This document shows, one piece after another, positions 10,736-64,000 of a stretch of DNA of 64,000 bases. The notes under the pieces were generated by a model that saw only the letters and a list, made by a program, of their open reading frames with translations, did no database searches and was not told the origin of the DNA. The stretch covers positions 5,394,001 through 5,458,000 of the forward strand of contig NC_088935.1 of assembly GCF_033473495.1 (NCBI RefSeq), given 5' to 3'. The stretch comes from Cercospora beticola. Lineage: Eukaryota; Ascomycota; Dothideomycetes; Mycosphaerellales; Mycosphaerellaceae. Position 1 is the stretch's first letter; each line of letters starts with the position of its first letter. Both the position numbers and the translations under genes were made by a program.

Positions 10736-12436
10736 TCACAGCTCATCGGCATTCGTTTTCTCCTCAACAGCACCCTTCTCAACAGGTTCTGGCTGCGGGC
10801 TCGAAATCCTCTTCCGCCTCCACTGCTTGCCCTTCCACTGCAAGACCGCCACCGGAAGCACACTGCACAGAAAGATCAAGCCAGCCATCAAACCTCCGCT
10901 CGCGGATCCCCCCAGACTCTCCAGCATATCAGGATACCAAAATGGCCCTATAAAAGCCCACGTGGACCGAACGCAGTTGATGAAGGTCCCGATACTTGCG
11001 CTGTGCTCTACATGACAGTCCACAGCATATGTTGTAGACACAGTAGCAATGATCTGGGCGCCGACGGCTGCGATTGCGATGCCGATGATGGGCGTCACAT
11101 TCCAATGACCTTGCTCGGACTGCTGAAAGCGGACGCCAAAGACGATGATGCCGACCATGCCAAGTGCGAAGCCAATGTACGACAGCCAGAGACGATGCTC
11201 AGCCGGAGGTGCCCGGTATCCCAGCCTCTTGGCTTTATGATTCATCCAGAAGTCGCTCAGACGTCCGCCGATCTGCTCGCCGATGATACTTCCGATAATG
11301 ATGCCCAAGAACTGCAGGCCGATCTGCTGAGCATTGAATCCGAATTTCGGCACAAAGAGTTGCGGGATTTCCACTGTAAGCAGAACACTGCAGAAGCCGA
11401 AGACGATCGAGTACGCGATTGTCGGAATGACGATGGAAGGATATTTGAATAAGCTCAGAGGCTGGATGAACTCGTACAGCTTGAGTGGGTTGGGGTCCAG
11501 GCGGCCAAAGGTAAGATACTCCTGCTTGAATGCAGATCCAACGTGCGTAACACCTTTGCGAACATATCTTGTCTCAGGCTGTAGGAAGAGAGCAAGGATG
11601 AATTGCGCACCGTTGATCATGGCCAGAACCCAGTAAATCCATCTGTAATTTCCGGTTTGAGTAACGACGAAGCCCATGATGAAGGGACCCAAAGGAGGAC
11701 CTATTGGACATTAGCGACTACGGACGACCGATGAGAGGGGTAAGCTTGTGATCTTACCAAGCGTGACAAGCAAAGTCCAAACACCCATGAACTGCGCTCT
11801 CTGCTTCTTGAAGTACGTCTCCGTCACCACGCCACTCCCGATACCTCCGGGAGGGCTGATGAAGAACGAAACAAAAGCACGACACACTGCCATAGTAGCA
11901 TAGCTATGCGACAAAGCACAGCCGACGTTGAAAAGCAACGATCCAATTGCACTGATGAGCCAAACAGGTCTCCGCCCATAGCGATTCGAAATCGGTTTCC
12001 AGAACAGTGGAGCGAAGCCCAGAATCGCAATTTGTAACGACGTCAAGTACGATGCCCTTGTGATCGAGGTCTCGAACTCTTCAGCAATGTTCTCGTATGC
12101 TGGGATGATGGCCGCTGCGATAAAGGTTGTCATCATGGCATGGAATGCAACACAGGACAGGTTTGCCAGCTTTTTCCATTCGGGCCAGTTGTAAGGGTCT
12201 GCTGGATCTGCTGAAGGTATCGGATCGAGGTCCAGTGTGCCATGGCGACTGAGGAGATAGTCGCGATGTTCTTGTGGGAGGTATGCTGCTTCTCCGAGGC
12301 TGATATTTGTGGCTCGATGTCCGATTTCGATGTCGGAGCTTGCAGTATCTGGCTGTATTTGAAGCTTTTGGTCGTTGGATGTGAGGTTTCCGGGCGCGAA
12401 GTCCTGCTCGTCGCCTGCCCGCTTCTGTTCTGTCAT
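10736..12436 (-). CDS. MFS transporter, DHA1-like
   Basis: Major facilitator proton antiporter of the plasma membrane. Two exons, 12436-11758 and 11700-10736, encode 547 residues; the 57-nt intron has GTAAGA and CCAATAG ends and its removal restores GPPLGPFIMG. The hydrophilic N-tail ends in the DPYNWPEWKK element common in fungal DHA1 carriers, followed by twelve hydrophobic segments. Motif A-like NRYGRRPVW follows helix 2, and PETRYVRKG lies near the central loop start. The frame is intact. It is the left-most gene of the apparent metabolite region; export of a peptide or other product is possible but unproven. The start was chosen as the first ATG of the open exon. Confidence 0.88.
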
Positions 12437-13549
12437 CGTTGCTGGATGCTGTAGCGAGTTCGCAAAGGCTTCCGAGGCACAGCCTTATAAGCTGAGGATA
12501 AGGCTCTCTTTCAGCTTCAATTTCAACTCCCACGAGATTTCTCAGGCAACACACGAGCTTTGGACGAAGATTGAGCAGTCTCTTCGCTGAAAATCGACCT
12601 GCGAAATCCAAGAAAAGAACAGCCAAGCACTCCTTCGCTGCTGAGAACGATTCAACGTCCAAAGAAAGCAACAGAAGTGGAACCACACGATATCATTCTC
12701 GGTCAAACAGAGCAAAAAGAGAAGCAAAAAGCAATAGTGCGTGGAAGGGGAGTAGCAGAGAGGAGTCGCAATCGCTCGCAAATCCCAGTCTGCTCGCCGC
12801 TGCTGCGGCGTCCCGTATAAATAGCCCAGCTCGAGCTCGGTTAGGAATCACAGCGACGTCTGGCATCGTTCTTCCCCATAAAGACATTGGGGCGAGACAC
12901 TGATCACTTCCCCCACAATCTCCCACACGCTTTCTCCAGACTTGTCCAACGTACCGCGTGAAAGTCCTCCATTGTCAAATGCCGTTCTGCTGCTCCGGGA
13001 GAGCGTTACCACGGGTATTGTAGAGGGACCACGCGGCAGGATAAAGGAAGTGGATAAGGTGGAGTCATTGGGACGTCGACTAAGACGAGCGAAGCAGTAA
13101 GTCCAAGCATGTCAAGCTTTTGAGTGGCCGTTCTTCCATCTTTAGCGTGGGAAAATCGGAGCCGAGTGACGATCCGCTTCGGTGGAAGTGGACCACCCTG
13201 GAGCTTTCTGTTGGTGTGTCCGAGAGCAGATCCGAGACGGCCGTAATTTATTGGCGCGTGGGAGCTATTTTCTGGCAACCGACTGCTGCGTTGCGTGCGC
13301 ACAACATTTGATCGAAAAGGACGACCTGGTGGCCAATATCCTACCTGATACTTGACCACGATCACAAGCGAACTTGAAATGCGAATGTGGCAAAGGCGTC
13401 AAACCCCGATGCAATACGCATCAGCATGCGCCAGCCGGAAGAAGGAACATCCAAAAGACTGACATGCGGATGTTGGCCGGGTGCTGACTTGTTGTCCACT
13501 TCAGCGGCTTATACTGCGGATGACTTCCATCGAATGCATTACGGAAGTG
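12437..13549. other. intergenic: MFS promoter side and P450 3' side
   Basis: Contains the upstream region of the MFS gene and the 3' side of the first P450. A perfect TATAAATA lies at 12816-12823. Its complement also reads TATA-like, so it could serve either strand; it is about 380 bp from the MFS start. Nothing else is supported, although open frames of 100-200 codons overlap here. Confidence 0.35.
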
Positions 13550-15287
13550 TTACGAAGTCGACTTCCCTCTCTTCGAAATCCTCACTTCCAAGCCTTCCTG
13601 CACTACGAAGAATGTCGAATGATACTTCAACTCTTCGTTGGGTCGCAGAAGCTGGAACTCATAATCGCGGAAGAGTAGCGGCAGAGTTTTGTTCATCTCT
13701 AGTAGAGCCAAGTTCTTGCCGATGCATAGATGTGCACCTCCTCCAAACTACCCAATGATCAGCACAAGCGCGAAGACGAGATGTGTTTGATGAAGACTCA
13801 CCTGGAACATGTATCTCTCCATCGTCTTCGCATCACCTTCTAGCCATCTCTCCGGGCGAAAGAGATGCGCGTCTGCGCCGAAGATTTCTTGGTCGCGATG
13901 TAGGACCCATCCGTTAAGAGCAACTTGCGTTCCTCCTGGAAGACTGTTGCCTTCGATTTCTGCTCCTGCTGGAGGTACGAGACGAGTGATATTCAAGCCT
14001 ACCGCAGGTCTGACACGCATCGCTTCCTTCAGGCAGGCCTGGAAGTATGGAAGAGCTTGAACCTCGTTCCACTGCGGCATTCCCGACAGCTGAGCAGATT
14101 GAGTGGCATCGTCGAGCTCCTTCTTCAATTTCGTGTAGATGGCCGGATCGCGCAGGACATGATAGCTGAAACTTTGCATCGTAGAAGCCGTGGAGTCGGA
14201 TCCAGCGAAACTACATTACCAAGGTCAGTCAATCGAGTCCAGTTTTTACAATTCCGACAGCCTGCACACTCACATTGCACCATGAGCAACAGCAAAAACA
14301 TCGCCATCTCGAAACACGTCCGGAGCCTTATCATGCGCCTCAATCAATCTCTGCAAGAGATCCTTCCTCTCCTTCCCTCCGCCGACTTTCCTTCTCTCTT
14401 CAATCGCTTCCAGCGCCATTCTCGTGATCAAGAATCTCTTCGGCCCCTCTCCTCCTCCAGGGACCAACTTCCAAAGCGGATTTCTGCGAAACACCCAATC
14501 CCACTCGGGAATTTGCCCGACCAACCCATCATACCATTGCATATCATCTATCGTCTTAATCGCATTTTCAACGTCGAAGCCGGCTTCCAAGAACCCAAAT
14601 CTTCGCGAGAAAGCAATTTCACCCAGCACATCGAAGGCGAAGTAGTGGAGCCAATTTCCTAGATCGCAACTCTCCCTCTTGTCCACATCCTGGCAAATCT
14701 TATCCAGACGTTGAGTGAGGTCTCGCTCCACACTCTCAATGACATCCGCCATAGTATGCATGGTCGCCATACTATACGGACCCGAAGCATACCGCTTTTT
14801 CACAGCATGCACGTCTTCGCGCGTTTCTGTGAAGATGTCTGGGTTCTCAGGAGGAGGGAACACTGCATAGAATTGCGTCTTGTGGAATCCTGACCCAGCA
14901 GCCAAAACACTTCTCGCTGCCTTGGGCGAAGAAAAGCCAAGTTCATTGGGTGCGATGCGTACGACAGGTCCATATTTCTCGTGCAGTCGAATGTGGTCGG
15001 TTTCGGTGTGGCCGGAGTAGGTGGAAAGGACTGCGAACATGGTTCACGAGTCAGGTATGTATCAACCAATACAGAAGCTGAAGCTGCTTCTGATACTGAC
15101 CTTTCCAGGCACGACTCCCTGAAGCAAGAAACGGACCAGGGTATCTCCTCAATGGCGACGCGTACTTGTAGTAGAAGAACCTTAGCAGCAATACCGCCGG
15201 CAGAATCAGGATCCAATAAGTTCGCAGAATTCGATAAGCTGCGAGCACGACAGGCTCGTCATGCCGGGCATCTGGCAGCACAGCCAT
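13550..15287 (-). CDS. cytochrome P450 monooxygenase
   Basis: Haem-thiolate monooxygenase, anchored in the endoplasmic reticulum. Four exons, 15287-15101, 15030-14274, 14210-13802 and 13747-13550, splice in frame to 516 residues, the normal fungal size. An N-terminal membrane anchor (residues about 20-37) is followed by the basic/proline hinge YASPLRRYPGP. The I-helix AGSDST is at 317-322 (oxygen activation), EXXR at 377-380 (EAMR), the FRPERW motif follows, and haem ligand FGGGAHLCIG is at 452-461 with Cys459. The usual Arg of the haem loop is His. The I-helix and haem motifs appear only after splicing. Overall style is that of the fungal benzoate-hydroxylase/pisatin-demethylase-like P450s. 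It sits between an MFS transporter and the RiPP precursor, so tailoring of a metabolite is plausible; the substrate is unknown. Confidence 0.92.
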
Positions 15288-18004
15288 TTTGGATGCGATG
15301 TCAAATGCAATCCGGTGGTCGGTGAGAGTCGACTACAACGAAGCGCAAACCTCTCAATCAAGAGAAGTGGAAGTTCTCCATCATAAGAGAAGTCCATGCG
15401 AGCCGCCACTGACCCCTCGCAAACACCCAGTGACCTCTCCATTTTCTCTCCTAATGAATGCTTTCCCAGTAACGAACGGCAAATGCTACTCCGCACCTCG
15501 TACGAAAGAATAGGCTTCTGAACGTGCCAACCATGACCTGTCAGCCGCCAAGCACGCACCCAGCCAGAGTATCAGAAATGGCCCAGAAGTCCAGACGAGC
15601 AGACCGGACAGTTGATCTGTGCGTGTTGACGCAACAAATGCGGGGCAGGCTGGATGTGTGTGGTGGATGCCTCGATGCTGAGAATTCGGCAGTTGATTGC
15701 AAGTGCAATCGCGAATGGAGGACGGACGTGGGGACGCGGGGAAGTGGAGAAGCTGCGGCGTTTGTGGCGAATGGGATGCGAGGGAGCTCGAACCTGGCGC
15801 TGCATCCTCTGGCCTTGCCGAGCACTAGATGCACATCATGGGAAGCCTTGCGCTGGCGCTTGACCTCCCTCCTTCTCTCAATACTGGAGCTTGGAATAGA
15901 CCTGCCTCCTTGCCTCGAGGGGACGTTGCTGAGGATTACAGCTGCAGGGTCGACAAAGTGTAATACTGATGAATCTCGTTCACAACGGAACCAAGGTCTT
16001 CAGCTCAATGTCCGTGTGTCTGTCCAGTTGTCATCAGTCTCGTGCTGTCCCATTTATGCAGATCGGTCACTCCGGCACAATCGCGTCCTTTTCGAAACTT
16101 ACGGCCATGCTTTTACTTCACAGGTCCGTGAGTCCATCGACAATGCTGCGCTGGATTGTTGAACGCAGTCTCCTAGGTATTCGCTGCCCACATGAGATTA
16201 ACGAGCAATATGTCTTCAAAACACTCACAAGTCCAAAATTTTAACTTCTGTCACAAAACAGGTTCTCAGCTGTTCTGCCTGCGCTACCGGAGCTCTTCGA
16301 AAATACGTTGATCGGCGTACATGATTCCCTTCCAAGATTTTGAATATTCCAGTGCATGTCGCTCTGGTAAATGCGGACCTGCTCAACATCAAGGTGAAAC
16401 AATGAGCGTGTTCGAAAGCAAAGTTTACTGTCAAGCTGAACGAGATTACAAGCTACGGCATGGCGTGCATAGATTTCAGCTGATGGCAGCATAACATCAG
16501 TACCGTCAAGATCTAAAACTCGACAAAAAAACGCCTCTGCCATCGAAGCCTCGCTCGCTGATCAAGCAGCGGTACATCAGAAAAACAGGAGGCGAGTCAT
16601 CTAGCAATGGACTTGAGGAGTCTTTGCTTTGAATGAGTTCGAACAGTGCAAGCGTGCTCGCCATCTCGGGACGCATAGCCTGTTTCCACACTTACAGGTA
16701 TATTCCGACTCACCGAGCAAAGCGACTGCGACTTTCTTGGTGGCTTTTGGGTTTTGGAAAATGGAGCCGTGGACTCTGGAAGACCATCCTCTCTGAGGCG
16801 GCTGTACAGGAACATCTTTAGAGCAAGTCAGACGACATCGACGCTTCCCGCAAGGCGTAAGTGCTCTGAGCAAAGACTCGAGAGGTACCGGGAAGGGCAT
16901 TGTACAGAAAACCTACCAAGTTCTGATATTTCCGCTTCAGGCGACACCAAATGGTCGTGTACCATACCCTAGTCGCGCATGCGATCGAGCCCCGTGTTCT
17001 CATCGGCCTTGTGGCGTGTCAGTAGGTGCCGGACCAAGACATTATACTATGCTGACACTAGGCGGCTAGCATGCCATAAGCCTCCTCCACGGTGATACCC
17101 CAGATTTACCCCATGATTCCCCGAGCGGTGAAACATGCTGTAAGCCTGTCAGGCGGCGAAGCTAGGCAACAATTTTACTGACCGATTTCAAACGTGAAAC
17201 TGGACTAGCATCGAGTTCTCGCATCATGCTGTTCTTTGCCATAATATGCGGAACCACTACCCGGGGATGAATGATGACCTGATCTGCCTGCCAGCTTCTA
17301 GATTGATCTATATCTCGTGCCACGATCGGCCCGCATCTGTGGCTCCGCTGACGCTCCTCTTGCGTTAGAGCTCATGGGCAAGCTACTGCTTACGCGCACG
17401 GTGAAACTGTCCTACTTTGGTAGTTTTGCACAAAAATCAGAAAAGCTTAGTGCAGACTAAGAAGAGCTTGGCCTAGTAGTTAAAGTCCGGCGGAACGTCA
17501 TGTTCTAAGCCCAAGCATGAGACGTGTGGCGTGCCTTTCGTAAACGCTGGTCGATGGCCCTTTCACTGCAAAGGTACTGCTTGGCTGGACGCTGGCCAAG
17601 ACCCAACTGCGTGATCTTGGAACTTTAAATCATCTGTGGATCAAATTGCACGAGACCAAAGATCGCCCAAAGGGACTTGGTCGAATGTCGCTATAGTCGC
17701 CGATACACTACGCAACCACTGTTGAAGGATCTCTCATGCACTTTTGAAAGATATGTAACTCGAGTGGTACTGACAACAAGGACTGAACTTCTGCAAACCT
17801 CAAGTATAGATAGCTATGTACACATCCACGTTCATTTCCCAGACGCGGAACTTGTCTGCATACATCCCCGGTCTCTTGAAGCCAGCCGAAAGCCCGTTCA
17901 CTTTTCTTTCCTACGATGCTGCAGTTAGAGATTAAATGGAGGAAGAAGCCCTTGCTCTCGGATGACCTATAGCGGAGAGTCATATAACTTCAGATGCATG
18001 ATCT
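15288..18004. other. 2.7-kb stretch with no supportable gene
   Basis: Begins with the P450 promoter side and ends at the 3' side of the peptide precursor. The longest frame (15524-16162, 212 codons) has low-complexity, arginine-rich translation and overlaps several frames on the opposite strand, so I do not call it. No HxxHC (UstYa) motif, transporter or P450 fragment was seen here. Confidence 0.4.
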
Positions 18005-18965
18005 CTAGTCCTCCCGCTTCTCCTGGTAGTGTGGCGAAAGGTAGTTTGGGTTGAAGGGGTTCTGAGCCTTACGCTTCTCCTTCTCCTAGTAGTATAGCGA
18101 AAGGTAGTTTAGGTTAAAGGGGTTCTAAGCCTTACGCTTCTCCTTCTCCTAGTAGTATAGCGAAAGGTAGTTTAGGTTAAAGGGGTTCTAAGCTTTATGC
18201 TTCTCCTTCTCCTAATAGTATAGCGAAAGGTAGTTTAGGTTAAATAGATTCTAAGCCTTACGCTTCTCCTTCTCCTAATAGTATAGCGAAAGGTAGTTTA
18301 GGTTAAATAGATTCTAAGCCTTACGCTTCTCCTTCTCCTAGTAGTATAGCGAAAGGTAGTTTAGGTTAAAGGGGTTCTAAGCTTTACGCTTCTCCTTCTC
18401 CTAGTAGTATAGCGAAAGGTAGTTTAGGTTAAATAGATTCTAAGCCTTACGCTTCTCCTTCTCCTAGTAGTATAGCGAAAGGTAGTTTAGGTTAAAGGGG
18501 TTCTAAGCCTTACGCTTCTCCTTCTCCTAGTAGTATAGCGAAAGGTAGTTTAGGTTAAATAGATTCTAAGCCTTACGCTTCTCCTTCTCCTAGTAGTATA
18601 GCGAAAGGTAGTTTAGGTTAAAGGGGTTCTAAGCTTTACGCTTCTCCTTCTCCTAATAGTATAGCGAAAGGTAGTTTAGGTTGAATAGATTCTAAGCCTT
18701 ACGCTTCTCCTTCTCCTAGTAGTATAGCGAAAGGTAGTTTAGGTTAAAGGGGTTCTGAGCCTTACGCTTCTCCTTCTCCTAATAGTATAGCGAAAGGTAG
18801 TTTGGGTTGAAGGGGTTCTGCGCTTCGCGCTTCACTGCAACCACGTTAGCCGGATGTACTCTTACGAAATTTTGGTTGCATATAAAGCGGTGGCAACTTA
18901 CGCTCAACGGGCGCTGCCATAGCGCCAGCTGCGGCCATAGTCAAGAGGAGGGTTTGAGTCTTCAT
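18005..18965 (-). pseudogene. Kex2-processed repeat peptide (RiPP) precursor, inactivated by RIP
   Basis: Exon 1 (18965-18902) encodes the signal peptide MKTQTLLLTMAAAGAMAAPVE. A 67-nt intron (GTAAGT, branch CTAAC, TTGCAG end) leads to exon 2 (18834-18005), which opens with L-KR-EA, a Kex2 site followed by an Ala dipeptide. Then come 13 units of 63 bp, each 21 codons: a core readable as NPFNPNYLSPHYQ, an EKEK linker and KR. The total of 894 nt (298 codons) keeps frame to a TAG at 18007-18005, where the last unit ends EKRED. Only that 3'-most unit is undamaged. In the other twelve the Gln of HYQ is TAG, and in ten the Gln before NPF is also TAG; Pro and His codons show CCA-to-CTA and CAC-to-TAC. 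All are C-to-T on the coding strand, nearly all at CpA. Kex2 repeat precursors feed dikaritin-type RiPPs; a UstYa gene lies 1.4 kb away. As read, no peptide could be made beyond the first unit. Confidence 0.88.
18008..18834. repeat. 13-unit 63-bp tandem repeat (minisatellite)
   Basis: Contiguous head-to-tail units of exactly 63 bp. The unit nearest 18008 is 6 bp shorter; the one nearest 18834 diverges at its outer edge. Two linker classes, one reading aaaggggttctaag and one aaatagattctaag on the plus strand, alternate irregularly. The second has extra C-to-T changes on the complementary strand. The period is a multiple of three and it codes the repeat precursor on the minus strand. Confidence 0.97.
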
Positions 18966-20370
18966 GGTAGCGACTTGTACGGGGTACTGATGTGTTGTGT
19001 TCGAGAATGAGTACTGGAGCTTGCAGGAAGAATGATCTCAGCTGAAGGAGATGCTCTCTTTTATAGACATTTTTCGACGGCTGTTTTGGCTCTCATCGAT
19101 CTCGACTGACCACTTCTCGGCGATACATGCTGCTTCTGACTTCGTCTGCTCAGACACTTTTCTTCATGGCCCTGCTTGACTTCCGGCCGTCTAACCCCGT
19201 TATGCAGTACCTGATCTGCTGTTCCAGCTAACGACGGGCCCTAAGTCGACTAAGGCCTTCTACTAGACTTGTTGCCTACCTCAATCAACCACGGCAAGCC
19301 GGCTCTTGCTCTTGTCACAAGTTTAAGCGATGGTAGCGAAAGATCGCGTAAATGAGCGATGAGGCCAGGAGAGCTCCCAAAGGTCACGAAGCCTCATCCT
19401 TCAGTGGCGGTGAAGAGTCTAGGATCTAGTGTGACGACTGACACCGTACACGACGGGTAGAAATACCAAAGACCAGTTCGGAAAAGCCTGAACTTTCCAA
19501 GTGAATCGCCATCTGCTCTCGTGTAGTGGAGCTCACATGCGCACGCAAGTGCGTCTTCCGAGCCCCAGAACCACTAGATAAAACCATGGGGTTCCTCCAT
19601 TCTCCAGGAGATAACTGCCGAGTTGGAGATGGGTCGCAACTCGGGGACATCGTACTTCCCAGTGACCCAAGACGTGGGTTGCTCTAAGGACGGAAGGTGC
19701 AGCATCCTGTAACAGTTAGCATCCACGCTTGTTGACTCTCGCCAGAACTAAAAATGTTTCGCCGCAACAAAAGACGGCCGAGGACAACCGCCGCGCCAGC
19801 GTGTCTGACCAGTTGATTCGAGACGGACTTAGTAGTCAAGGCAAGCGCTGGTCTGAAGTATGACACTGTCCCGTCGTGCAACCGTGTGGGAATAGATTCG
19901 GTCTTGCAATTCACCCCAGCAAGGAAGGTGGAATCGATGGGCCAGAGAAGATGAAGCAGCGAGTGGACGGCCCAGCAACTCGAGAAGACTTCTTCACGGG
20001 TAAACACGTCTGGTCGTCGCCCAGAAATCCGCCGGCATGGATTCGCACTCGGTCACGCTGCCTCCGCTTTTCAGCGGAGTTTCCCCGACATCCCCAGGAC
20101 TTGTAAGTGAGCCCTAGAACACACTTAGGTCTGGAACCCCACACAGACCGAATGGTCGCTTATGGACAATCCGGGTTTGGTGCAAGATGATGGTGCTGGG
20201 ATTTGAAGAATAAGTTGGAAGAGAGAAGAATTTCCCCGAATGGAAGTTTCCCCAAGTTTTGGAGCCCACAAATTTTGGGCTTCGTGCCTTCTACAGCAAT
20301 TGCCTCCCTGCCTCTCAAACACCAACGCCGCAAAGGTCAAAGCATAGAACTGTATGAACGCGATCAGAAG
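18966..20370. other. divergent intergenic region, precursor to UstYa gene
   Basis: 1.4 kb between the start codons of the minus-strand precursor and the plus-strand UstYa gene, so both promoters are expected here and could be shared by a pathway regulator. Apart from the TATA box at 19058-19065 I see no gene; the short open frames are mutual shadows. Confidence 0.5.
19058..19065 (-). promoter_or_regulatory. TATA box of the peptide precursor gene
   Basis: Minus-strand TATAAAAG ends about 92 bp upstream of the precursor ATG at 18965, a sensible core-promoter distance. It supports a real gene on this strand rather than a chance frame in a satellite. Confidence 0.6.
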
Positions 20371-21377
20371 ATGGGATACCATCGCCTCACATCACCAGTC
20401 TACCATGACGAAGCAGAAGAAGCATCGCTCACGCATGGCGAGTCGAAAGAAGATGACAATCCGCATCGTTACAAGAAGCCTTCGATCTGGAAAATGCGTT
20501 TTATCATAGGAATGTCAATAGCGATGAACGTCGTCACCTTGATGCTCTGCGCAGCTCTCTACTCGAAAATCACATCACAGCTTGACAGAGAATCCAAACT
20601 ACGTAAGTTCGGTTGCAGCGACAGTGAAGGAGAGATATGTCCAACTGAATACTTGAGACAGATCCCTTCTTCGAAGGAGTAGACGACGGCCGCTACCCAA
20701 ACGACTTCGAAGCAGTCCACTTATCGTCATCGAAATTCTCTCAGCCCGTATCAGTCGCCGGCGACAAGGTCGAAGAAGAATGGATCAAAATCGGTGCATT
20801 CTGTAAGTCTGCGTTCAACTCCCCTACGGCCCACCATCCTCATCATATCTTTCCCTCAGTAGCTAACCACAATAACTCATTGATCATCACAGACCAACCC
20901 GCATTCCTCCCCGACAAATACGCCGCAGACTTCAACTTCATTCCAGGAAAACACCTCCGCTACACGCCCTCTGACGGGGACTACGCCCTCTACAGCGGCT
21001 ACTCCGCCGACGTCGCCATGACACACTACATCCACTGCGTCAACCTCCTCCGCGAATCCCTCTGGTTCAACTACGACTACTACCGCAGCATCCACATGAC
21101 ATCTTTCAACGTCCCCGAAGGCCAAGAACAAGCCATCATCGATCACGTTTCGCATTGTGTGGATGCTTTGCGGAAAATGATTATGTGTGAGGCGAGTTTG
21201 GAACTTTGGCCTTTTGTGACGAATGCTGATGGATTGAATGTTACGGATATGAGTGCTAGTACGAGGAAGTGTAAGAATTATGAGGCGAGGAGGAAGTGGG
21301 TGGAGAAGTGGCAGAGTTGGGGCGCGCCGCATCAGGTTGATGATCATCATCTTTCGCATTGGAGGGTGTCTGGATGA
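20371..21377 (+). CDS. UstYa family (DUF3328) oxidase
   Basis: Copper-type oxidase family that cyclises or otherwise oxidises side chains of fungal RiPP peptides such as ustiloxins. Three exons, 20371-20602, 20662-20802 and 20893-21377, encode 285 residues. A cytosolic N-tail is followed by one membrane helix at about 43-65, then a lumenal domain with the family hallmark HxxHC-(x)n-HxxHC: HYIHC at 169-173 with a following LLRESL, and HVSHC at 209-213 with a following DALR. Both introns are needed to carry the frame into the domain (junctions give ESKL-HPFFEG and GAF-YQPAF). The start chosen is MGYHRLTSP; an in-frame ATG at 20203 would add 56 residues of poor, non-family-like sequence. It points away from the ruined precursor across a 1.4-kb intergenic region. 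The frame is intact and the motifs are complete, so it looks functional even though its likely substrate gene is not. Confidence 0.93.
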
Positions 21378-21553: not shown

Positions 21554-23136
21554 TTAATCATCAACACAACCCCCCCAATCAAACTCCAACTTCTGCCTCT
21601 GCCCATCCCTCCCCTGCCCTACATACTCCATCTCAAACTCCCTTATCAAACCCGCCAACACAATCGCCATTTCAGCTCTTGCCATTTTCTCTCCAATGCA
21701 CATCGTCGGTCCTTCTCCAAACGTCATAAACGCCAAACGCTCTTTTGCTCCTCCTGTGGGATCGGAAATCCAGCGGGTGGGGAGAAATTGGGATGGGTCT
21801 TGGGACCAGAGTGAGGGGTTGTGGTTGAAGACTTTCTGGACGATTATAAGGACTGTGCCTTGGGAGATTTGGTGGCCGAGGAGGTTTACGGAGGGTGTGG
21901 GTTCGCGGGCTAGGGCGGGGATGATAGGGTGTAGGCGGAGGGTTTCGTTGCAGATTGCGGTAAGGAGTGGGATGGAGGTGATGAGGTCTAGATGAGTGGC
22001 TGCGAGAGAGGAGGAGTCCTCTTTTGATTGGATATGCTCCTTGATTTCTGCGCGGACACGAGTTTGCAGCGTTTTGTCTTTGCTTAGCTCAAAGATTGCT
22101 AGGCATATCGTTTGGGCGATGGTTTCGTGGCCTGCTCCGAGGATTCCCAGTGCTTGGTTTACTAGCATTTCAAAATCCGTGATGCCGCCTTCACTAATAC
22201 ACGCGGAGATGATGTCGTTGTGCCCTTCTCCTATAGCAGCCTTTGACAGATTCGAAGCTTCCTCCCCCTCGTCTCGATCAACTATACTATCTTTCCTTCC
22301 CACCTCCGCTGACGCGAGGATCTCAGCCTTTTTCTTCGCAATCACCCCTCCGATTCGCCGTCGTACTACCTCTACCGCTTTAGCAGTCTGCTCATTTCTT
22401 TTCGTCGGAAACTTCTCCACGATTTTCCCGGGCAAAAGGTGCGCGAGCATTGTCCATGCCAGTCCTGCTCTCGCCCCATTTCCTTCGCCTCGGAAGACAG
22501 CAGCGTATTCTTTCCAAAGATCGTTGTCCGGATTTGCGAGACAGTCGAAGTCAAGACCAAAGCCTGCTTGTCCGACAATGTCTAACGTGGTGCGATTTAT
22601 GAGTTCTGAGATTTCGACTCTGCTGTCCGTCGCTGCTGCCTTGTGCAATAGATTGACAAGTTCTTGGGTTTGGCCCAGAAGAGCGGATACTGATTCTTGA
22701 TCTGTCGGCGTGTAAACATCGGTTGGAGAAGTTTCCGTTGCTTCTGGTGGTCTTCGCCTACAGCCGTCACGAGCCCGTTGCCCAGAAGTGAGGATAGGAT
22801 TTTTCGGGATATAGTTGCTTTCTGGTACCTAGAGTTTGCTGCTCCTCTTTGGTATACTTCTTGAATGGCTGCTGGAGTGGTGAGCAAGATTTTGGGCTTG
22901 TTGAACATGCCTCGATAGAGGATCAGACCGGAATTGGGGACGCTGTCTGCCCATGCTTTTCGCTGGTCGTGGTCTGGTTCGATGAAGAAACGGCGCCATA
23001 TGGGTGCTTGCGGCGCTTGAGGAATGGACTGAGTCCAGTCATTCGTAGTGAGGTAGGAAGAGATGAGTAGCAGGGAAAGTGCGATGATTGCAACGGCCAA
23101 AACGGTCGCTGGGTCAAGAGCTGGTACGTTGGTCAT
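21554..23136 (-). pseudogene. cytochrome P450 with a one-base frameshift
   Basis: Single-exon P450 frame. It opens with a membrane anchor (MTNVPALDPATVLAVAIIAL and on) and runs well through LLGNGLVTAVGEDHQKQRKLL. After about residue 155 the frame changes at 22669-22671 within GGCCAAACCC on the minus strand. One missing A there would join PLFWAK to TQELVNLLHKA and give 527 residues. Downstream, all P450 marks are present: I-helix GAGHETIAQT, EXXR (ETLR), a PTRW motif and haem loop FGEGPTMCIG with the Cys ligand. The usual Arg of the haem loop is Thr. No GT-AG intron of workable size spans the shift. So this is either a recently broken gene or a sequencing error in a short A run. It lies tail-to-tail with the UstYa gene (177 bp apart) and would be a natural tailoring enzyme of the same peptide pathway. 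Confidence 0.83.
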
Positions 23137-23694
23137 TGCAGTTGTGGGTAATGTAGCAGCAGCCTATGTTGCGTCTTGAAGCGATGGTTCCAGCTGGAAC
23201 GGGGTCCAGATTTGATATCAGTAGATAGTAATCAAGTCGCAGCTCCGCGCCATCCGACTGCTGGGTGAGTTCCCTAATAACATGGCTCTTCCATGTAGCT
23301 GGGCATTTCCCGATGCAGAGTTTGAGACCTCTCGGGCTTCTATAGCGTGGAAGAGGCAGCGCAGTGTCATCAGTCCACCACGGGTCTTAAGTGATACGCA
23401 CAAGACAAGTCTTTCGTCTTTGTAAGCAAAGACCTCTTTCAGGACTTATTCCGCCCCTGTATTACACACTATTTCTGTTCTGTTCTGTTGTTATAGTAGT
23501 AGTAGTACCAGTACCCAGCGAGCTCTGTTCATCTCATGACATCAAGGAGAAATGAAATAAGAAGAAAAGAGAAATAGGCGTACTCTGGTATCTCGCACAC
23601 ACGCAAACACAAAAGGAAACTGAAAAAGTAATTTTACACGCCCTCCCCATGTCCAATCTGATGATGAATGAGCCCAGCTCATATCCCCGGGAAT
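23137..23694. other. intergenic: P450 promoter side and syntaxin 3' UTR
   Basis: The only structure noticed is a short TAG trinucleotide run (gtagtagtagta) near 23496. This interval seems to mark the end of the metabolite region, because the next gene is a housekeeping syntaxin. Confidence 0.4.
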
Positions 23695-54578: not shown

Positions 54579-55526
54579 ATGGATTCGACACTGGCTCTAG
54601 ACTGCGAGTCTACATACCGATACTACACTCCCAGCGTTCCGTTGGCTACTGTCGCTGTTGTCCTTTTCACTGTTGGCGTGGGTGCACACACAACGCATAT
54701 GGTCAAGACCAGAACATGGGACAATGCATTCATGGTCTTAGGCGGCTGCTGTAAGTGTTGTTGCAGATGATCGACTCAGGTCTTGTTAACATTCATCCCA
54801 GGTCAACTGGTTGGATACATCGCCCGGCTGGCCTCTGCATGGCATCCGTGTAGTAAATCTCTGTTTGATGCACAGAAAGTCTTGCTACTCTTCGGACCAT
54901 CCCTTCTCATGTTTACCATTACCTTGACGCACACGCAATACATCAGGGCGATTCGTGCTGAAGCGTTCTGCTGGGTACCGGCTCTTCAATGGCAGCGGCC
55001 AGCATACCTGTCATGTAACACGATTATCATTGTCTTGCAAGCCGCTGGCGCAGGACTGATAGCTACCTCCTTGTCGAGAGAAGACGCAGAAGTCGCCAAC
55101 AAAGTCGCCATAGCTGGATACATGGTGCAAGTACTGTTTTCAATCTATCTACTGGCAGAGCACACCTGGGTAGGATTCCGCACGAAGAAGGCAGCCGAAG
55201 TGAGCCGCGACGACGATTTGACAACGATGGCGTCTGAGCCCAGTCTCATGTCAGCAAAAGACCTATTTCAGCATTGGAGTCGATGGGGAAATCTCATCAC
55301 CTTGGGAATCGGCATCGCTGGCATGGGTCGGAGCATGATGCGTTTGGGCGAGACGAAGGCCGACTTCATGAAAGAAAACGAGTGGCCTAGTTATGTTTTC
55401 GATGGATATTAGATGGCCGTTGTGATGGGCTCCTGGGCCATTTTCTACTTGCTAGGCAAGTGTGCAGAAGTGCTCCGGTCGCAGAGACGTTATTATTCGC
55501 TCGCGATAGAGATACAGAGCGCTTGA
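54579..55526 (+). pseudogene. RTA1-like membrane protein truncated by TAG
   Basis: RTA1/RSB1-like proteins are seven-helix membrane proteins linked to lipid translocation and resistance to toxic lipids or azoles. Exons 54579-54750 and 54802-55412 (51-nt intron) give 260 residues with family features: an N-terminal hydrophobic segment, GGCCQLVGYIARLAS, LLLFGPSLLMFTITL, NTIIIVLQAAGAGLIA and ending EWPSYVFDGY. The TAG at 55410-55412 falls where relatives continue into helix 7. Immediately after it the same frame reads MAVVMGSWAIFYLLGKC to a TGA at 55524-55526, so the rest of the helix is still there. CAG-to-TAG by C-to-T at CpA explains the stop. The site is only about 130 bp from the RIP-degraded block. 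Confidence 0.82.
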
Positions 55527-58500
55527 GATACGAGCTGCGCTATGCGGATTATAAGGTGAACAAGAATTATATATTATCGTATTATTAAAGGCCTAGAGCC
55601 GATAATTAAGTATAAGCATTCGACCCTTACCTCTCTACTACGTCGTATTACTCGTATACCGGTCCTATATATCTAGGTCCTAGATACCTTCCCTATTAGG
55701 TTATACGGAAGTATAGCTATATATTTTAACTCTACTTCGTCTAGCTAAAGCTTTTACGAGATATAGAATATATAGAGACGAAGTACTACTAAACGTCGAT
55801 AAAAGAGATATAGCCTCGTATTATATATAAAGTTTCTTCTATAGGTACGCTATATCCGATATATATATAAAGTAGCTTAGTAGTAGAGATAATAATACCT
55901 ATAATTTTACTACTAGACTATAATTTCTAGTATAGATATCGAGGAGCTCTATATTTCTACTATAAGTAGAACTATAAAGTAATATAGTAGGACTATCCTA
56001 GACTTAGAACTTCGAGATCTATAATACTTTTATATTCGAATATATTCTAGAGTAAATAATAAGAATAAGTTAGTAGAAAAGAATACGCTAGTACTAAATA
56101 TATAGTTAGACTTTATATTCTATAGGACTACTATATAATCTAAAAAGAGCTATTCTAAATACTAATAAGTATAATAGCCTACTAAAAAGAAAATATTATA
56201 TTATAGAAGTCTAGTAATTTTAAAGAAAATAACTTAAGATCTACTTACTATCTATAACTTTTAATTACTTAATATATATAAGAACTAGATTAAAGAGCGC
56301 CTAGTATTCTTATCTAGCTAGGCTAAACTCGGTAGAGTAGTCTATAGTAAGAGATAGGAATAGTACTACTCTAACTAGTAAGAACTATTAATTCGATAGT
56401 AACTTAATAGAAAATATAGAATAGATAGTTACTTATAGTATATTTATATATCTTATATAGTAGAATAGACCTACTTTATATTAGCTCTAACTAAGTCTAC
56501 TTTTAATTCGTTATCGCTTATCTATATAGCTATTCTATAGTCGTTTATAGACTTAAAGTACTATTTATACTATATCTATAAATATACGAAAGATAGCCTA
56601 GCTCTAGAATTTATATTTAAAAAATAAGTCGCCTATAAGCTATTATTATACTAGTAGCTATACTATACGTAAATCGCCTATTAGATAAGCTTTATTATAT
56701 AAGAATATAGCTTCTTAAAGTAAAATATCTATAAGGTAATAAGTAAAGATATATAGTCGTAGTATAGAGCTAACTAGTCTATAATAAGTATCTAGAATAA
56801 AATAGCTATAGTATCTAATAAACTTTCCGAGCCTATAATTTTATTTTATATATTAATAATAGCTAATAGTAGTAAGCTTATACTTACTTAGTATATAGAG
56901 TCTAAGTAGTATTATAGCTACTATCTTTATATTTTTATTATTAGAGTACTATATATTTACTCTATAGATAGGCTAACTAGATTAGAATTAAAAGGAATTA
57001 GTAGAAGTAACTAGAAAGAATCGATAATTATACTAAGTAGCTTTACTAGAACTCTAGTATATATATAGATAAGCTCTATAGTTCTAGTTAGTATTTACTA
57101 GCGAAATAGCTATATCTATAAGTATATTACTAATTTCGTAGGCTCTATTAAAGAAGAGTATAGTCGTTATACTAAATATAATAAGTAGTAGAATATTCTA
57201 TACTATATCGAATATATTTATACTCTAAATAATTATAGTCGAGTTATTTAGAAAGTCTATATACTTTCTAGTAACTCTAATAAAAACTTTATATATAGTA
57301 GTTATAAAAGCCTTAGTTATTACTTCGTTAATAGCTATAAGTAATAGTAGTATACTATTAAAAGAGCTAAGTTCTAGTTAGAAATAAATACTATAGCTTA
57401 TATAAAAGTAATATCTATATATATATTAGATACTCTAGTACTATTAGAAAAGTAGTAAAGATTCTTATATTCTTACTTAAGCTCTAAGTATTATATTCTT
57501 AGATAATCTCGTTTATAGTATTAAGATATACTACTATAGTATACTTATTTATAGCTAGTATACTTATAGCTAAGCTAAGAAGAAAAGAAATATTTAATAG
57601 TAAGAATAATATTATAATCGACTTAGAAATACTAGTTATAAATATATAGTCGACTTTTCTATATAGTAGTTCTATATTAATATAGCTATAAAGCTCTATA
57701 TTTATAACTACTTTATTACTAATTATTTCTAGAAGCTTCGTTATAAGTACTTTAAGATTATTACTATATATTTATAGACTAATAATAGGCTTTAAAGAGC
57801 TAGCTTTCCTAAAGAAGTAAAGAATTAGCGAACTTCGAATATATATAGCTTATTTTAAACGTTTAGTAGAAATAACTTTATATTAGAATATTATAAAATT
57901 AGAAAGAAATAATATAAGTATTAAGTTAAGTAAAAGTATATAGTAAAAAATACTAAAACTATATATATAATAAAGAAAAGCTCTTTATAAAGTACTTTAT
58001 TAAGTATTATATATAGTATTCGAAATCGACTAACTATTTTATATAACTTATATATTACTATAGAAAAGATATTTAACTACTATAAATATATAGTAAATTA
58101 GAATATAAGTTATACTTATAAAAGTATTTATACTTTAATATATAAAAGCTTTTAAACTATACTAGAGTACTCTAAGTTATATAGTATATATACTATTTTA
58201 AGCTAAGCTTTTCTATACTAAGCTATCTTCGAATATATACTATAAATCTATAGAAGTATTTTAGCTAAAGTTTTTAAAAAATAGATTCTTTACTTCTTAA
58301 ATTATATTTAGACTTATAGGTAATCGGCTTATAGTAGTAGAAGTAGCTATTATTAGAAAAGTACTACTCTAGCTATTAGTACTAGTTATTAAGAAAATAG
58401 TACTTAAGCTACTAGATAATATTATCTAAATAGTAGCTAATAAGCTACTTAATATACTAGAAAATATTATCGAAGAACTATACTTATATTTAGAGTTCTA

Positions 58501-61500
58501 TATAATAGTAGTAATTTAAGTAATAGATATAGTTTATAGAATAGTTTAAGCTTATAAAGCTATTTCTAGAGTAGTAGCTATTATTATACTTAATAGAAAA
58601 GTTACTTTACTAGCTAGAGGAACTAGTAAAGTTATTATCGATATTTAAGTAATTCTAGATTTCTTACTAGTAATACTTATAGTTCTAGTCTATATAGTTA
58701 ATATAGTTATAGTCGTTACTAGTAGACTATATTTTATAACTATAGTATTACTTACTAGCTTAGTATTATTATACTCTATATTATTATACTAACTATAGTT
58801 TATATTATAGTTATTAGTAATAGCTATACTAGATAGTTACTTCTTATAGAATAGTAGTTATTATTCTAGAACTATATAATTATACTAGAGTTAGCCTAGA
58901 AGCTTTAGCTATATAGAATAGTTCTCTATAGTAAATACTATAGATTATAAAGTAAGAATATAAAGAACTAGTAATCTATAGATACTTTATATTCTACTAT
59001 ATAGTTACTTTAAAAGCTAGTTTAGTAGTATTATAATATATTCTTATATATTATAAATAGAGTCTACTAGTATAGAAAGTACTTTACTTATAGTATATAG
59101 TAGAAATATACTATCTACTAACTAAGTAGTACTATACTTATAGTCTAATAATCGCTAAAAAATTATTTAAGTTATTATTTCTATAGAATATAAATTAAAA
59201 GAAAGCTATAGAAGTATACTTTATATAACTTATAGAACTTTATAAATCTATAATTCTAGTATATTTTTAAAGTAGTATTTCTTAACTATTACTATATAGA
59301 TTATTATAATTTAAACTATATTATAATTACTATATATTAAGCTTACTAAACTAAAAGTTTAATACTATCTTTCTACTTAGTTATTATATTCTTAATAGTT
59401 TAGCTAAATTAGCTTATATATTTACTACTAGCTTTATAGACTCTATAAATATAGACTATAGAAGTAGTACTTTTAACTCTATTTATTTTAATTACTTTAG
59501 AGCTTTAATTAATTAATTAAAGTATTATTAGAGCTATCTATTAGCTATCTTATCTTCTTTAATATATTATACTTCTACTTTTACTTTAGTAGCTTATTCT
59601 TATTTAGTTATATACTAATTAAGCCTTTTACTTACGAAGTTCTATTATATACTTCTATATAGTTATAGGTAGAAATAGATAGCTTCGGCTATACTAGTAA
59701 AGTATAGAATAGCTAGATATCTATATAAATAGAAAGAAAGTAATAAAAAAAAAAAGAAAGTCTAGAAATCTATAGAAGTATATACTAAGTAAACTCTAAC
59801 GAATACTATAAACTAGAGCTAGTATAGCTAGAACTAATATAAGATCTAGTACTAAGAGACTAGACTAGAATCTCTAAATAGTAAATTCTATTCTAAACTT
59901 AGAAGCTAGAGTAGTAACTTAGTACTAAAATAAGCTAAAAAGAAAGAAAAAGTATACTATAATTAAAGCTTTAAAGTAAAGTAAAAAGAGTAGAGAGAAG
60001 TATAAAATAAAGTAGCTAAAACTATAAGAAAAATATTCTAGTCTAGATAGAAAGTAGAATAATAAGCTAAATAAGAGGCTTATAAATCTATTAAGAAGTA
60101 TACTAGAAAGAAAAAAGAATATATTTCTATATACTAGTATATATCTTTAGTACTACTAGGTTAACTACTTATTCTAAGAGATTAAGTACTCTATTTATAG
60201 AGCCTATTTATAGGTTCTATAGTAGAATTAGATAATAACTAGTAGAACTATAGGAATAGAAATATTTATTTAAAGTCTAGCTTTTTTAAATATTTTATAA
60301 TTAACTCTAAAAGTAGAGTATCTAATAAAAGTAACTCTTATTCTATACTTAAAGCTACTTATAATAGAAGAGCTAGTTTAGAATACTACTACTTAATATA
60401 ATTTCTATAAATATAGGTTATATAACTTAGATACTAAGTAAAGTAGAAAGTTTAAAGTAGAATTTTAATATTAGAGAAAGCTTCTACTATAAACTAGTAA
60501 GAAAGAGTTAGATATAAGATTAATATAAATACTAGTATAGAAACTAAAACTATATATATAGGCTTAAGTCTCTAAGCTAGTAAATAAAAGAATTAGACTT
60601 CTAAGTACTAATAATATAAGAAATAACTAAGAAGAACTATATTATAAAAGAACTAAACTATTAAGATAATATAAATTATTCTAAAAAGAACTAGAAACTA
60701 TAGAAGTAGTAAGCTATATAGAGCTTACTATAAAATATAAGAATATAAGAAAGTTTTTCTACTAGAGTACTAGTATAAGAGCTTTTCTATTTATAAAATA
60801 TATAGAGTATACTACTTACTCTATTTAAAAGAGATAGACTAGTATATAAGAATTATCTAATTAAGTCTTTCTAACTTCTACTATTTCTTTATAATTAATT
60901 CCTATATATTAGCTAGTTTTTTAGCTTATTTCTAAGCTTTCTTCTTAGCTTATTCTACTTCTTTATTTAGCTATTATTAAGCTATAAAGTCCTTAGCTTC
61001 CTTTATTTTCTAAAAGCTATATATTATAGTACTATCTATATTTAGTTTATACTAGTTATTAATTAGACTTTTACTTTTAGTTTTATATTTCTTCTTATTA
61101 GTAATAGCCTACTTTAAGCTATTATTTTTAGCTTTAAGTACCTAGTTCTAAGCTTATATAGTAAATAGCTTATTATAGAAACTTTAGAGTTATTTATAAT
61201 ACTTAAAATTAAATACTTTAAAAAGTATTTATCTAAATATACTATATATAAAGTAAAGGCTTAATTCTAAGTAAGTTAAAGTATAACTTAAAGCTTTTAA
61301 GCTAGTAGTAACTAGCTTTAATTCTAGCTACTATATACTAAATATTATTAATAGATTTAGTAAATAAATACTAGTTTTATTAAAAGAGCTAAAAATATTC
61401 TTTATAGTAAAAGTCTAAGTAAATATAAGCTAAAATAACTTAAGGAAGTTCTATTTTCTTACTATAGATAGCTCTTAGTACTCTATATTAAACTTATTAA

Positions 61501-62462
61501 GCTTCTAGCTATATCTAATAAATAAGAGCTTAAGTAATAATATATTTAGTAGCTATAAGTAGTAGGTACTATATAGTAGAAATACTATAATTAGAATCTT
61601 CTTTTCTAAAGTAAAGTTAATAAACTTTATAGTTATATAAGAGCTATAGCTATCTAGAATTAAAAGCCTCTACTTTAGCTATACTTTAGCTTTTATATAT
61701 CTATTAAATACGTTTCTAAGCTATATAAAACTAAAGTTATTATTAGTCTATCTAGTTTTAGAAGTTTATTAGTAAATCTTATAGATCTTAGAGTTAAAAT
61801 TCTATATCTAGCTATTTTAAATATAATTTTCTTAAGCTTTATAAATTATTATTAGAGATAGCTATAAACTATTAGTATAAATACTAGCTAAGATAGTAAT
61901 CTATTTATAGTTACTAGAGTAAATATTTCTAAGTACTTTCTTTATTTCTAAAGTATATTTTATATAAATATACTTTATTTTATTTATAAAGCTAATTATA
62001 AACTTTTTCTTATTTATATTATATATATTCTTAGACTTAATCTTATATTAAGTAACTTTAGCCTTTAGAAGCTAAAAGTACTAATTAAATAACTACTTAG
62101 AATTAGCTTTAAAGTATAAATACTCGATTAGTATAAAATACTTAGAAGTAATCTAATTAGGCTATCTTTTTATAAATCTTAGTATCTAGTTATTTCTAGG
62201 TCTATAACTACTAATCTTATATATAAAATTAAGAACTATTAATAGAGTTAGAGATATTCTATAGTAAATATATCTATTAATATATATAAGCTATATTTAG
62301 AATCCGAGTAGTAAGACCTTAATACTTAGAGTTTAGTAGGTATAGTACTTTCTCCGGCTCTAGGTAATATCTTACTATATAGTACCTTACTACTTAGCTT
62401 AATTAGCTATATTAACTCGTCGTATACTACGCGTTTATACTCGTCGTATATTACTATATATT

Positions 62463-62700
62463 TATATATTATATATTCGCTTATTATATATTATTATATA
62501 TTCGCTTATTATATATTTACTTATTATATATTTACTTATTATATATTCGCTCGTTATATATTCGCTTATTATATATTTTATCGTTATATATTTACTTATT
62601 ATATATCGTCGTATATTCGCTTATTATATATTCGCTTATTATATATTCGCTTATTATATATTCGCTTATTATATATTCGCTTATTATATATTTGCTTATT
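62463..62700. repeat. 15-bp AT minisatellite
   Basis: About 15 imperfect copies of a 15-bp unit, best read as ttattatatattcgc, with variants ending ttac, tttac or cgtcg. It lies inside the AT-rich block and retains regular CG steps unlike its surroundings, so it probably expanded after, or escaped, the C-to-T decay. Confidence 0.8.
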
Positions 62701-62701
62701 A

Positions 62702-62790
62702 TATACTACTTATCGTATACTACTTATCGTATACTACTCGTTATATACTACTTATTATATACTACTTATTATATTCTACTTATTATCTAT
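62702..62790. repeat. 14-bp AT minisatellite
   Basis: Six near-perfect copies of a 14-bp unit (tatactacttatcg, later tatactacttatta) directly adjoin the 15-bp array. The 65-codon open frame over this repeat is an artefact of its periodicity. Confidence 0.75.
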
Positions 62791-64000
62791 TATATATTAT
62801 ATATTATATATTACCTACTCTATATAAAACCTCTATATACTATCGGGATACTTTCGCTACTATCGAAGCGGATATTATCTACTTACTAAGCTCTCTATAA
62901 ACTAGATATCTTCGCTTTAAAGCCTATCTAAGAATATAGTATTAATTACTATAGTAGACTATATAGATACCTAAGTAAATAACTAGAAACTCTATTAGTA
63001 GAGTTTATAGTTTTATTCTTATTAAGTCTATTAGTCTACTAACGATAATACGATTAATTTTACTAAAGATAATAATAAAGTAGTTAAGTAGAGATCTTAG
63101 TAAGTTATAGCCTCTAAAGCTAAGAAAGACGAAGAAGTCTATTTTAGAATATTAGATACTAATTATAATATTTTCTACGTCCTCCGATTTATAATACTAA
63201 CTAGCTCTACTATAATAGTAGTAACCTACTTATTAGATAAATTATTTATAGCTTTAGAAGAGAAAATATTTTTAGTAAAGTCTCGAATAAAATAATAATT
63301 AACTATCTACTCTATTATATTTATAATAAAAGTAGTATACTTACTCTATAGTTCTATTAGTAAAATATAAGGATATTTTAAGTAGATTATATACTTTATA
63401 GAGAGCTAAAAGATAGTCTAGAGTATTCTTAGAAATACTATAAATATTATTATTTAAACCGAGATATATACTTAATACTATAATATATATATTATAGTCT
63501 AAATATAATAAAGTTTCGGTCGTAGTAAGTTCTTTATTAAGCTTATAGTTAGCTAGCTTTATTATATTAGCTAGATATAATAGATTATATATAGTATTCG
63601 AATAATTCTTATTATCTATAAGCTAATAAAGCTAGCTCTAAGCTAACTCGAAATAGTATTATAGGTCGTTATCTATAGAGTCTAGAATCTTATTAATAAG
63701 ATTAAGCGGAGCTATTATATAAATAACCTCCTTTATAAAGCTAGTATAAGCGCTTTCGACTTAGATAATATACTATTCGGCTAGCCTCTTCTATAGCTTA
63801 GATTACTTATAGAAAGTATTCTAAACTAGTAGTATACTTAGTATTCTAGGAAGTTTAGAGCTATATATATACTTATATAGCTTTATAATCTAATTAATAG
63901 CTTCCTTATAATCTATATTACTCTTTCTCTTTTTAATACTATTAGCTTTACTCTAGTTATATTTACTTAAAGTATCTATACTAGAAGTAACTCTATTCTA

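What the first reader, a model, noticed from the sequence alone, without database searches (positions are those of the whole stretch)
18005..18965. A satellite-looking repeat is a RIP-killed multi-copy peptide precursor
Read on the plus strand this is an anonymous 63-bp tandem repeat. On the minus strand it is exon 2 of a gene with TATA box, signal peptide, intron with branch site, Kex2 KR at the start and after every unit, and a terminal in-frame stop. All 298 codons stay in one frame, but 22 TAG codons replace the two Gln codons in most units. Gene finders would miss it because of the stops. It gives a rare view of RIP destroying a gene from inside because its own coding repeats were recognised as duplicated DNA.
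Basis: partly seen in the sequence, partly recalled or inferred. Interest (0 to 1): 0.95.

Follow-up and report, generated by a model that had tools for sequence, protein, structure and literature searches.

The report
Fungal peptide gene mutated through its repeats
A fungus that looks like a Cercospora carries a gene for a multi-copy secreted peptide, next to enzymes that probably tailored it, whose own repeated coding units appear to have drawn the fungus's anti-duplication mutation system (RIP), leaving the units full of stop codons while the DNA on either side is untouched.

Summary
Minus strand 18965-18005 reads as a two-exon gene (signal-like exon 1, 67-nt intron, thirteen 63-bp units with Kex2-type KR sites, terminal stop) with 22 in-frame TAGs in units 1-12. 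RIP indices are extreme in the array (PI 4.07, SI 0.14; 1052 overlapping control windows: PI at most 1.07, SI at least 0.95). Against the undamaged last unit, 67 of 72 CpA cells changed to TpA, against 14 of 168 other C cells. This looks like a dikaritin-type RiPP cluster with a dead precursor, in a Cercospora-like fungus. A homologous RIP-mutated array lies beside a paralogous UstYa on another contig, inside a broad RIP tract. Of the other tandem arrays seen outside RIP tracts, none is both long and near-identical, and none is mutated; 9 of 34 UstYa places were not seen. No intact homologue was found. Self-targeting is inferred, not shown.

The parts
18902..18965 (-). Exon 1 of the precursor: start codon, signal-peptide-like leader; lies in a 400-bp bin with normal RIP indices
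   Evidence: Sequence and splice signals; indices; its peptide occurs once in the 36-Mb genome
18835..18901 (-). 67-nt intron (GTAAGT...GCTAAC...TTGCAG)
   Evidence: Read from sequence; no transcript data
18008..18826 (-). Thirteen 63-bp coding units, 22 in-frame TAGs in units 1-12, unit 13 undamaged
18005..18007 (-). Terminal in-frame stop codon
19058..19065 (-). TATA-like box 93-100 nt before the ATG
   Evidence: read by eye
20371..21377 (+). UstYa (PF11807) gene, open after splicing three exons (20371-20602, 20662-20802, 20893-21377), 285 aa, two HxxHC motifs; divergent from the precursor
   Evidence: 95% identical over 100% to Cercospora kikuchii CKM354_000227900
21557..23163 (-). Cytochrome P450 gene, looks intact by eye (not spliced)
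   Evidence: PF00067 E 3.9e-53 in 21557-22828; the 22600-23163 piece is below the family cut-off; frames
13550..15332 (-). Second cytochrome P450 gene, several exons, looks intact by eye (not spliced)
   Evidence: PF00067 E 6.2e-11 in 14273-15043; outer exons and heme motif read by eye from recalled motif
10739..12484 (-). MFS transporter, looks intact by eye (not spliced)
   Evidence: PF07690 in both pieces; frames

Best explanation
It is the precursor gene of a UstYa-type (dikaritin-like) RiPP cluster, now a pseudogene. When intact it would have encoded a secreted precursor whose 13 near-identical units were cut at KR by Kex2, with the released Tyr-containing cores oxidised or cyclised by the neighbouring UstYa and P450s (inferred from homology). 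In a past sexual cycle the array, 0.94 self-identical over 740 bp at a shift of one unit even after the damage, was read as duplicated DNA by RIP, and CpA became TpA along it. That put TAG into units 1-12 and spared exon 1, the intron, the flanks, the last unit and the enzymes. Shown: frame, units, stops, RIP spectrum, sharp confinement, open UstYa next door. Inferred: that the internal repeats were the trigger, that RIP followed amplification, and that the product was a cyclic peptide.
For: RIP signature confined to the array; self-match at a lag of 63 falls to 0.32 and 0.23 outside it. 67 of 72 CpA cells C>T against 14 of 168 other C cells; 6 of 6 CpA sites hit against 3 of 14 other C sites, p = 0.002 by site. 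Edge pattern: units 4-12 hit at all six CpA sites, units 1-3 at 3, 5 and 5, unit 13 at none. Of the 7 other variable columns in the 51 nt compared, 5 are third codon positions. UstYa open, P450s and MFS apparently intact. Exon 1 and the array have no other copy found. Homologous array beside a paralogous UstYa. Genome has a DIM-2-like and two other cytosine methyltransferase genes and one Kex2-type P-domain gene. Quoted RIP limits, above ~80% identity and over 400 bp (passages of PMC2621366), are both met.
Against: No intact homologue found. The homologous C6 array lies in a broad RIP tract, so RIP there was not confined to repeats. A 222-bp repeat in two copies at 95% match is not RIP-mutated by both indices (L005, PI 1.44, SI 1.57), so identity alone does not suffice. 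PI alone is slightly over 1.15 in L005, L009 and L049 too, though their SI is normal. 14 C>T cells are at CpC; 5 of these sit before an A in a unit variant, 9 stay unexplained. RID was not identified among the three methyltransferases, and sexual competence was not shown. No expression evidence.
Confidence: 0.76

Rival explanations
1. RIP was triggered from outside: by a second genomic copy of the array or gene (perhaps since lost), or by the C6 paralogue, not by the internal repeats.
For: A paralogous UstYa-precursor cassette exists on C6 and its array is RIP-mutated too.
Against: The UstYa genes of the two cassettes align at 74% DNA identity over 472 bp, below the ~80% limit, and the window's UstYa, exon 1 and flanks show no RIP. 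A DNA search with 18500-19000 finds only this place in the genome. A copied gene would be expected to carry damage beyond the array edges.
Confidence: 0.1
2. A few units were mutated first, and damaged units then spread by unequal exchange, giving a satellite-like expansion of dead units. This may also have acted together with RIP.
For: Units 4, 8 and 11 are identical, and units 3-8 alternate between two types, so block exchange is likely. The edge units keep the older state.
Against: The two unit types (eight of one, five of the other) each occur with and without the change at one CpA site (types, sites), which needs recurrent mutation or recombination. It does not by itself explain why the changes are CpA>TpA.
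Confidence: 0.1
3. The gene is not fully dead: the first stop comes right after the first core, so it could still encode a short single-core precursor (signal, KR, one core) for the neighbouring enzymes.
For: Exon 1, the intron signals and the first core read open up to the first TAG. UstYa is open and 95% identical in C. kikuchii.
Against: Unit 1 also carries RIP-type changes (3 of 6 sites). There is no transcript or peptide evidence. UstYa may serve another precursor, or the loss may be recent.
Confidence: 0.07
4. A non-coding satellite that happens to stay in frame.
For: Tandem structure, many stops, no protein homologue found.
Against: Exon 1 with signal-like leader and splice signals, KR spacing, terminal stop, adjacent UstYa, and a second array of another period sharing the xFNxNYxSxYY pattern beside a paralogous UstYa.
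Confidence: 0.03

Closest known systems
Dikaritin precursors of ustiloxin, phomopsin and asperipin-2a (passages of PMC7329392 and PMC12048977)
   Same: Signal-like leader, repeated Kex2-bounded cores with Tyr, adjacent UstYa (DUF3328) gene with two HxxHC motifs
   Different: Stops in 12 of 13 units; core unlike those named in the passages; one UstYa found in the window; no tyrosinase or methyltransferase seen among the 40 ORFs scanned; product unknown
Kex2-processed repeat proteins (KEPs; listed abstracts and passages of PMC6339444, PMC7329392)
   Same: Repeats separated by KR, followed by EA or KA
   Different: Reading frame broken by TAGs; the main texts of the two papers do not hold the words RIP or repeat-induced
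RIP of duplicated DNA in filamentous ascomycetes (passages of PMC2621366, PMC7882544; one section and passages of PMC7296669)
   Same: CpA>TpA, high TpA/ApT, low substrate index, identity and length above the quoted limits
   Different: The duplicated DNA here is a 63-bp unit repeated within one single-copy coding gene; PMC7296669 reports that coding sequence is rarely RIP-mutated
Proposal that intragenic repeats under 400 bp may escape RIP (passage of PMC2257937)
   Same: The idea that repeat length inside a gene decides its fate under RIP
   Different: That passage concerns simple sequence repeats that would escape; this array is about 800 bp and did not

Membership tests
Kex2-processed repeat protein (KEP) | Signal peptide | tested here: inconclusive
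   Hydrophobic exon-1 leader read by eye; no predictor run
Kex2-processed repeat protein (KEP) | Near-identical motifs separated by KR sites | tested here: met
   13 units; KR at the start and in 12 of 13 units, unit 10 has KH
Kex2-processed repeat protein (KEP) | Open reading frame | tested here: not met
   22 in-unit TAGs: a pseudogene of the family, not a working member
Dikaritin cluster | UstYa/DUF3328 protein with two HxxHC motifs near the precursor | tested here: met
   PF11807 E 8e-24; motifs HYIHC and HVSHC; starts 1.4 kb away
Dikaritin cluster | Transporter or peptidase | tested here: met
   MFS at 10739-12484
Dikaritin cluster | Tyrosinase and methyltransferase (original five-gene definition, later relaxed; passage of PMC12048977) | tested here: inconclusive
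   None among the 40 of 168 ORFs of 100 aa or more that were scanned; the other 128 were not scanned
Dikaritin cluster | Cyclised peptide product | not testable with these tools
   Needs chemistry
RIP-mutated DNA | CpA>TpA bias; product index > 1.15 and substrate index <= 0.75 (values from a passage of PMC7882544) | tested here: met
   PI 4.07, SI 0.14; 67 of 72 CpA cells
RIP-mutated DNA | Duplication above ~80% identity and over 400 bp (values from a passage of PMC2621366) | tested here: met
   0.94 identity over 740 bp at a lag of 63, measured after the damage
RIP-mutated DNA | RID/DIM-2 methyltransferases | tested here: inconclusive
   Three DNA_methylase genes; one matches the 1456-aa PDB methyltransferase 9bap at E 1.4e-158, probably DIM-2 (name recalled); RID not singled out
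RIP-mutated DNA | Sexual cycle | tested here: inconclusive
   Two MATalpha_HMGbox matches, one with stops in frame (introns or decay)

The most novel reading that the evidence does not exclude
RIP acts as a filter on RiPP and Kex2-repeat precursors. In RIP-competent fungi, a precursor that multiplies identical cores beyond a few hundred bp of self-homology is destroyed from inside, so surviving clusters keep short or diverged repeats, and fungi lose the peptide while keeping the enzymes. In this genome the arrays seen fit: the long near-identical one is dead, while the four intact candidate precursors measured have 0.67-0.81 identity over at most 213 bp at a lag of one unit.
Probability: 0.35. 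Interest if true: 0.78.

Novelty: new variant of a known kind. Interest (0 to 1): 0.62.

Why it matters
RIP is known as a defence against transposons and duplicated DNA, and coding sequence is reported as rarely hit in Neurospora (PMC7296669, section 13 read). A coding minisatellite that looks RIP-killed from within, with its tailoring enzymes beside it, links genome defence to the evolution of multi-core peptide precursors. It also yields a testable rule (repeat length and identity) for which precursors can survive. In practice, genome mining that needs an open frame would miss such precursors.

Tried and rejected
Non-coding satellite: rejected on gene structure and the C6 homologue. Alpha-pheromone precursor: considered; no pheromone model was run, and UstYa neighbours are almost never seen with pheromones (PMC7329392 passage). 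Leakage from the AT-rich block: rejected, since the nearest one to the right starts at 55.5 kb and none is seen for about 28 kb to the left. Structured RNA: no Rfam match in the window at the gathering cut-offs. Intact homologue in the protein database: one search scored only the 7999 candidates sharing most words and gave 7 hits up to E 10 (best 4.2e-5; 6 named histidine kinases, 1 with leucine-rich-repeat Pfam codes, recalled), which I judge to be low-complexity matches; one search gave none of 7327. One search returned a single fungal UstYa, so fungal coverage may be thin. Polyubiquitin as a control: three open units at C6:3005820-3006482, but its DNA could not be fetched, so its repeat identity is unknown; it could speak for or against the filter idea. 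Watters et al. on tandem duplications is not held. Passages of PMC11969663 gave nothing on repeat length.

Not in print, as far as seen: the listings showed no title or abstract start about RIP of a Kex2-repeat or RiPP precursor. Several of these lists were cut (for example 15 of 106, 15 of 140, 10 of 54, 8 of 43). Three papers that hold both UstYa and repeat-induced point (PMC9453070, PMC11444983, PMC8146201) were not opened. Subscription papers were not searched.

Full report
WHAT IS THERE. The window is G000:C1:5394001-5458000 of a 36.07-Mb fungal assembly in 10 contigs. On the minus strand, 18965-18005 reads as a gene: exon 1 (18965-18902) with a hydrophobic leader, a 67-nt intron (18901-18835), and exon 2 with thirteen 63-bp units and a terminal TAG. 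TRF: period 63, 12.7 copies, 93% match, no indels. In-frame TAGs inside units: 22, none in the last unit. KR stands before unit 1 and in 12 of 13 units; unit 10 has KH.

RIP. In the array PI (TpA/ApT) is 4.07 and SI 0.14. Over 1052 other overlapping windows of 803 bp in about 1-55000, the PI maximum is 1.07 and the SI minimum 0.95. Published cut-offs are PI > 1.15 and SI <= 0.75 (PMC7882544 passage). In 500-bp bins only the array and the AT-rich block from 55.5 kb pass both. Compared with the last unit over 51 nt, units 1-12 differ in 92 cells: 67 C>T at CpA (of 72 possible), 14 C>T at CpC (of 168 other C cells), 5 C>A, 4 G>A at ApG, and 2 others. By site, 6 of 6 CpA sites and 3 of 14 other C sites are hit (p = 0.002). 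The cell-wise p (5.5e-39) overstates independence. Units 4-12 are hit at all six sites, units 1-3 at 3, 5 and 5, and the last unit at none. Of the 7 other variable columns, 5 are third codon positions. One CpA site is changed and unchanged within each of two unit types (eight and five units), so mutation recurred or units recombined.

CONTEXT. Pfam was run on 40 of 168 ORFs of 100 aa or more; 13 of 40 had a family, one of them below its cut-off. Next to the precursor lie UstYa (20371-21377, +, open after splicing, two HxxHC motifs), a P450 (21557-23163, -), a second P450 (13550-15332, -) and an MFS transporter (10739-12484, -). Only UstYa was spliced; the other three look intact by eye. UstYa has one database hit, 95% identical over its length, in Cercospora kikuchii; the species is therefore taken as Cercospora or close kin (inference from one protein). 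The genome holds 63 UstYa exon matches, a lower bound, which merge into 34 places when matches within 10 kb are joined.

COMPARISON WITHIN THE GENOME. TRF arrays (period 24 or more, span 100 bp or more) found outside AT-rich blocks and the C6 tract: the window array; L005 (222 bp x 2, 95%); L007/L049 (84 bp, 78%); L009 (48 bp, 76%); L020 (66 bp, 77-81%); L023/L047 (102 bp, 82%); L052 (45 bp, 83%, not a UstYa locus); L061 (two 102-bp arrays, 75% and 71%). Identity at a lag of one unit was measured for four of these plus the two damaged arrays: window 0.94 over 740 bp, C6 0.95 over 218 bp, L049 0.79 over 213 bp, L009 0.67 over 171 bp, L020 0.69 over 183 bp, L047 0.81 over 91 bp. Of the non-C6 arrays, only the window's passes both RIP cut-offs, and only it exceeds both quoted limits (~80%, 400 bp; PMC2621366 passages). 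L005, L009 and L049 have PI slightly over 1.15 but SI of 1.57, 0.96 and 0.88. L005 shows that identity without length does not suffice. By the looser 65% and 100-bp definition used in PMC7296669, several intact arrays would also count as duplicates, so the limits are not firm. The sample is one damaged array against a handful.

THE C6 RELATIVE. At C6:1286385-1286674 a 72-bp array of four units carries one TAG per unit (PI 5.1, SI 0.00) and matches the window array at E 1.5e-5 in a search of the whole genome. It lies about 1.1 kb from the nearest aligned part of a UstYa that is 80% identical in protein over residues 126-283 and 74% in DNA over 472 bp. The part matching residues 1-79 was not found in the fetched DNA, and RIP runs from about 1285226 through at least 1290200. 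This supports the coding origin and a precursor family. It does not support self-targeting there, since the damage is not limited to the array.

MECHANISM. Most likely RIP in a past sexual cycle paired the array with itself out of register and mutated CpA along the homologous stretch. The spared last unit and partly spared first units fit reduced pairing at the ends, but would also fit unequal exchange that spread damaged units from the middle; both may have acted, so the odds given to the explanations overlap. The genome has three cytosine methyltransferase genes, one probably DIM-2, and one Kex2-type P-domain gene. RID was not identified, and mating competence was not shown.

LIMITS. No DNA from sister species, no transcripts, no peptide. 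No intact precursor in the protein database, though coverage of fungi there may be thin. Copy number in a tandem array may be affected by assembly. The dead state refers to this genome only.

VERDICT. The finding is real and its reading is largely right. The main additions are the UstYa/P450/MFS context, the homologous second array, the sharp confinement of damage, and the contrast with short or diverged arrays. The parts are known kinds; RIP of a single-copy gene through its own coding minisatellite was not seen in the listings of the library searches made here, several of which were cut lists.

Noticed in passing
window 55501-64000: AT-rich block (about 20-23% G+C from 56001 on) with 0 CpA and 1 TpG in 56001-64000: nearly saturated RIP, about 37 kb from the array.
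   Followed up: partly
L057 385-674 (C6:1286385-1286674): Second RIP-mutated Kex2-type array, 72-bp units, beside a paralogous UstYa whose N-terminal part was not found and lies in a RIP tract.
   Followed up: yes
L049 348-644; L009 336-554; L020 113-361; L047 3941-4133: Four candidate intact repeat precursors beside other UstYa genes, with diverged short repeats; L009 has KK rather than KR.
   Followed up: partly
L005 241-684: 222-bp unit in two copies at 95% match near a UstYa gene, not RIP-mutated by both indices: identity without length seems to escape.
   Followed up: no
G000 C5:191481-191669 and C2:1431125-1431313: Two MATalpha_HMGbox matches, one with in-frame stops: introns or a mating-type gene fragment.
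   Followed up: no
G000, 34 places: 63 UstYa exon matches (a lower bound), which looks like a large repertoire for one fungus.
   Followed up: partly
window 18008-18826: Units 3-8 alternate between two types and units 4, 8 and 11 are identical, suggesting block exchange of more than one unit.
   Followed up: partly
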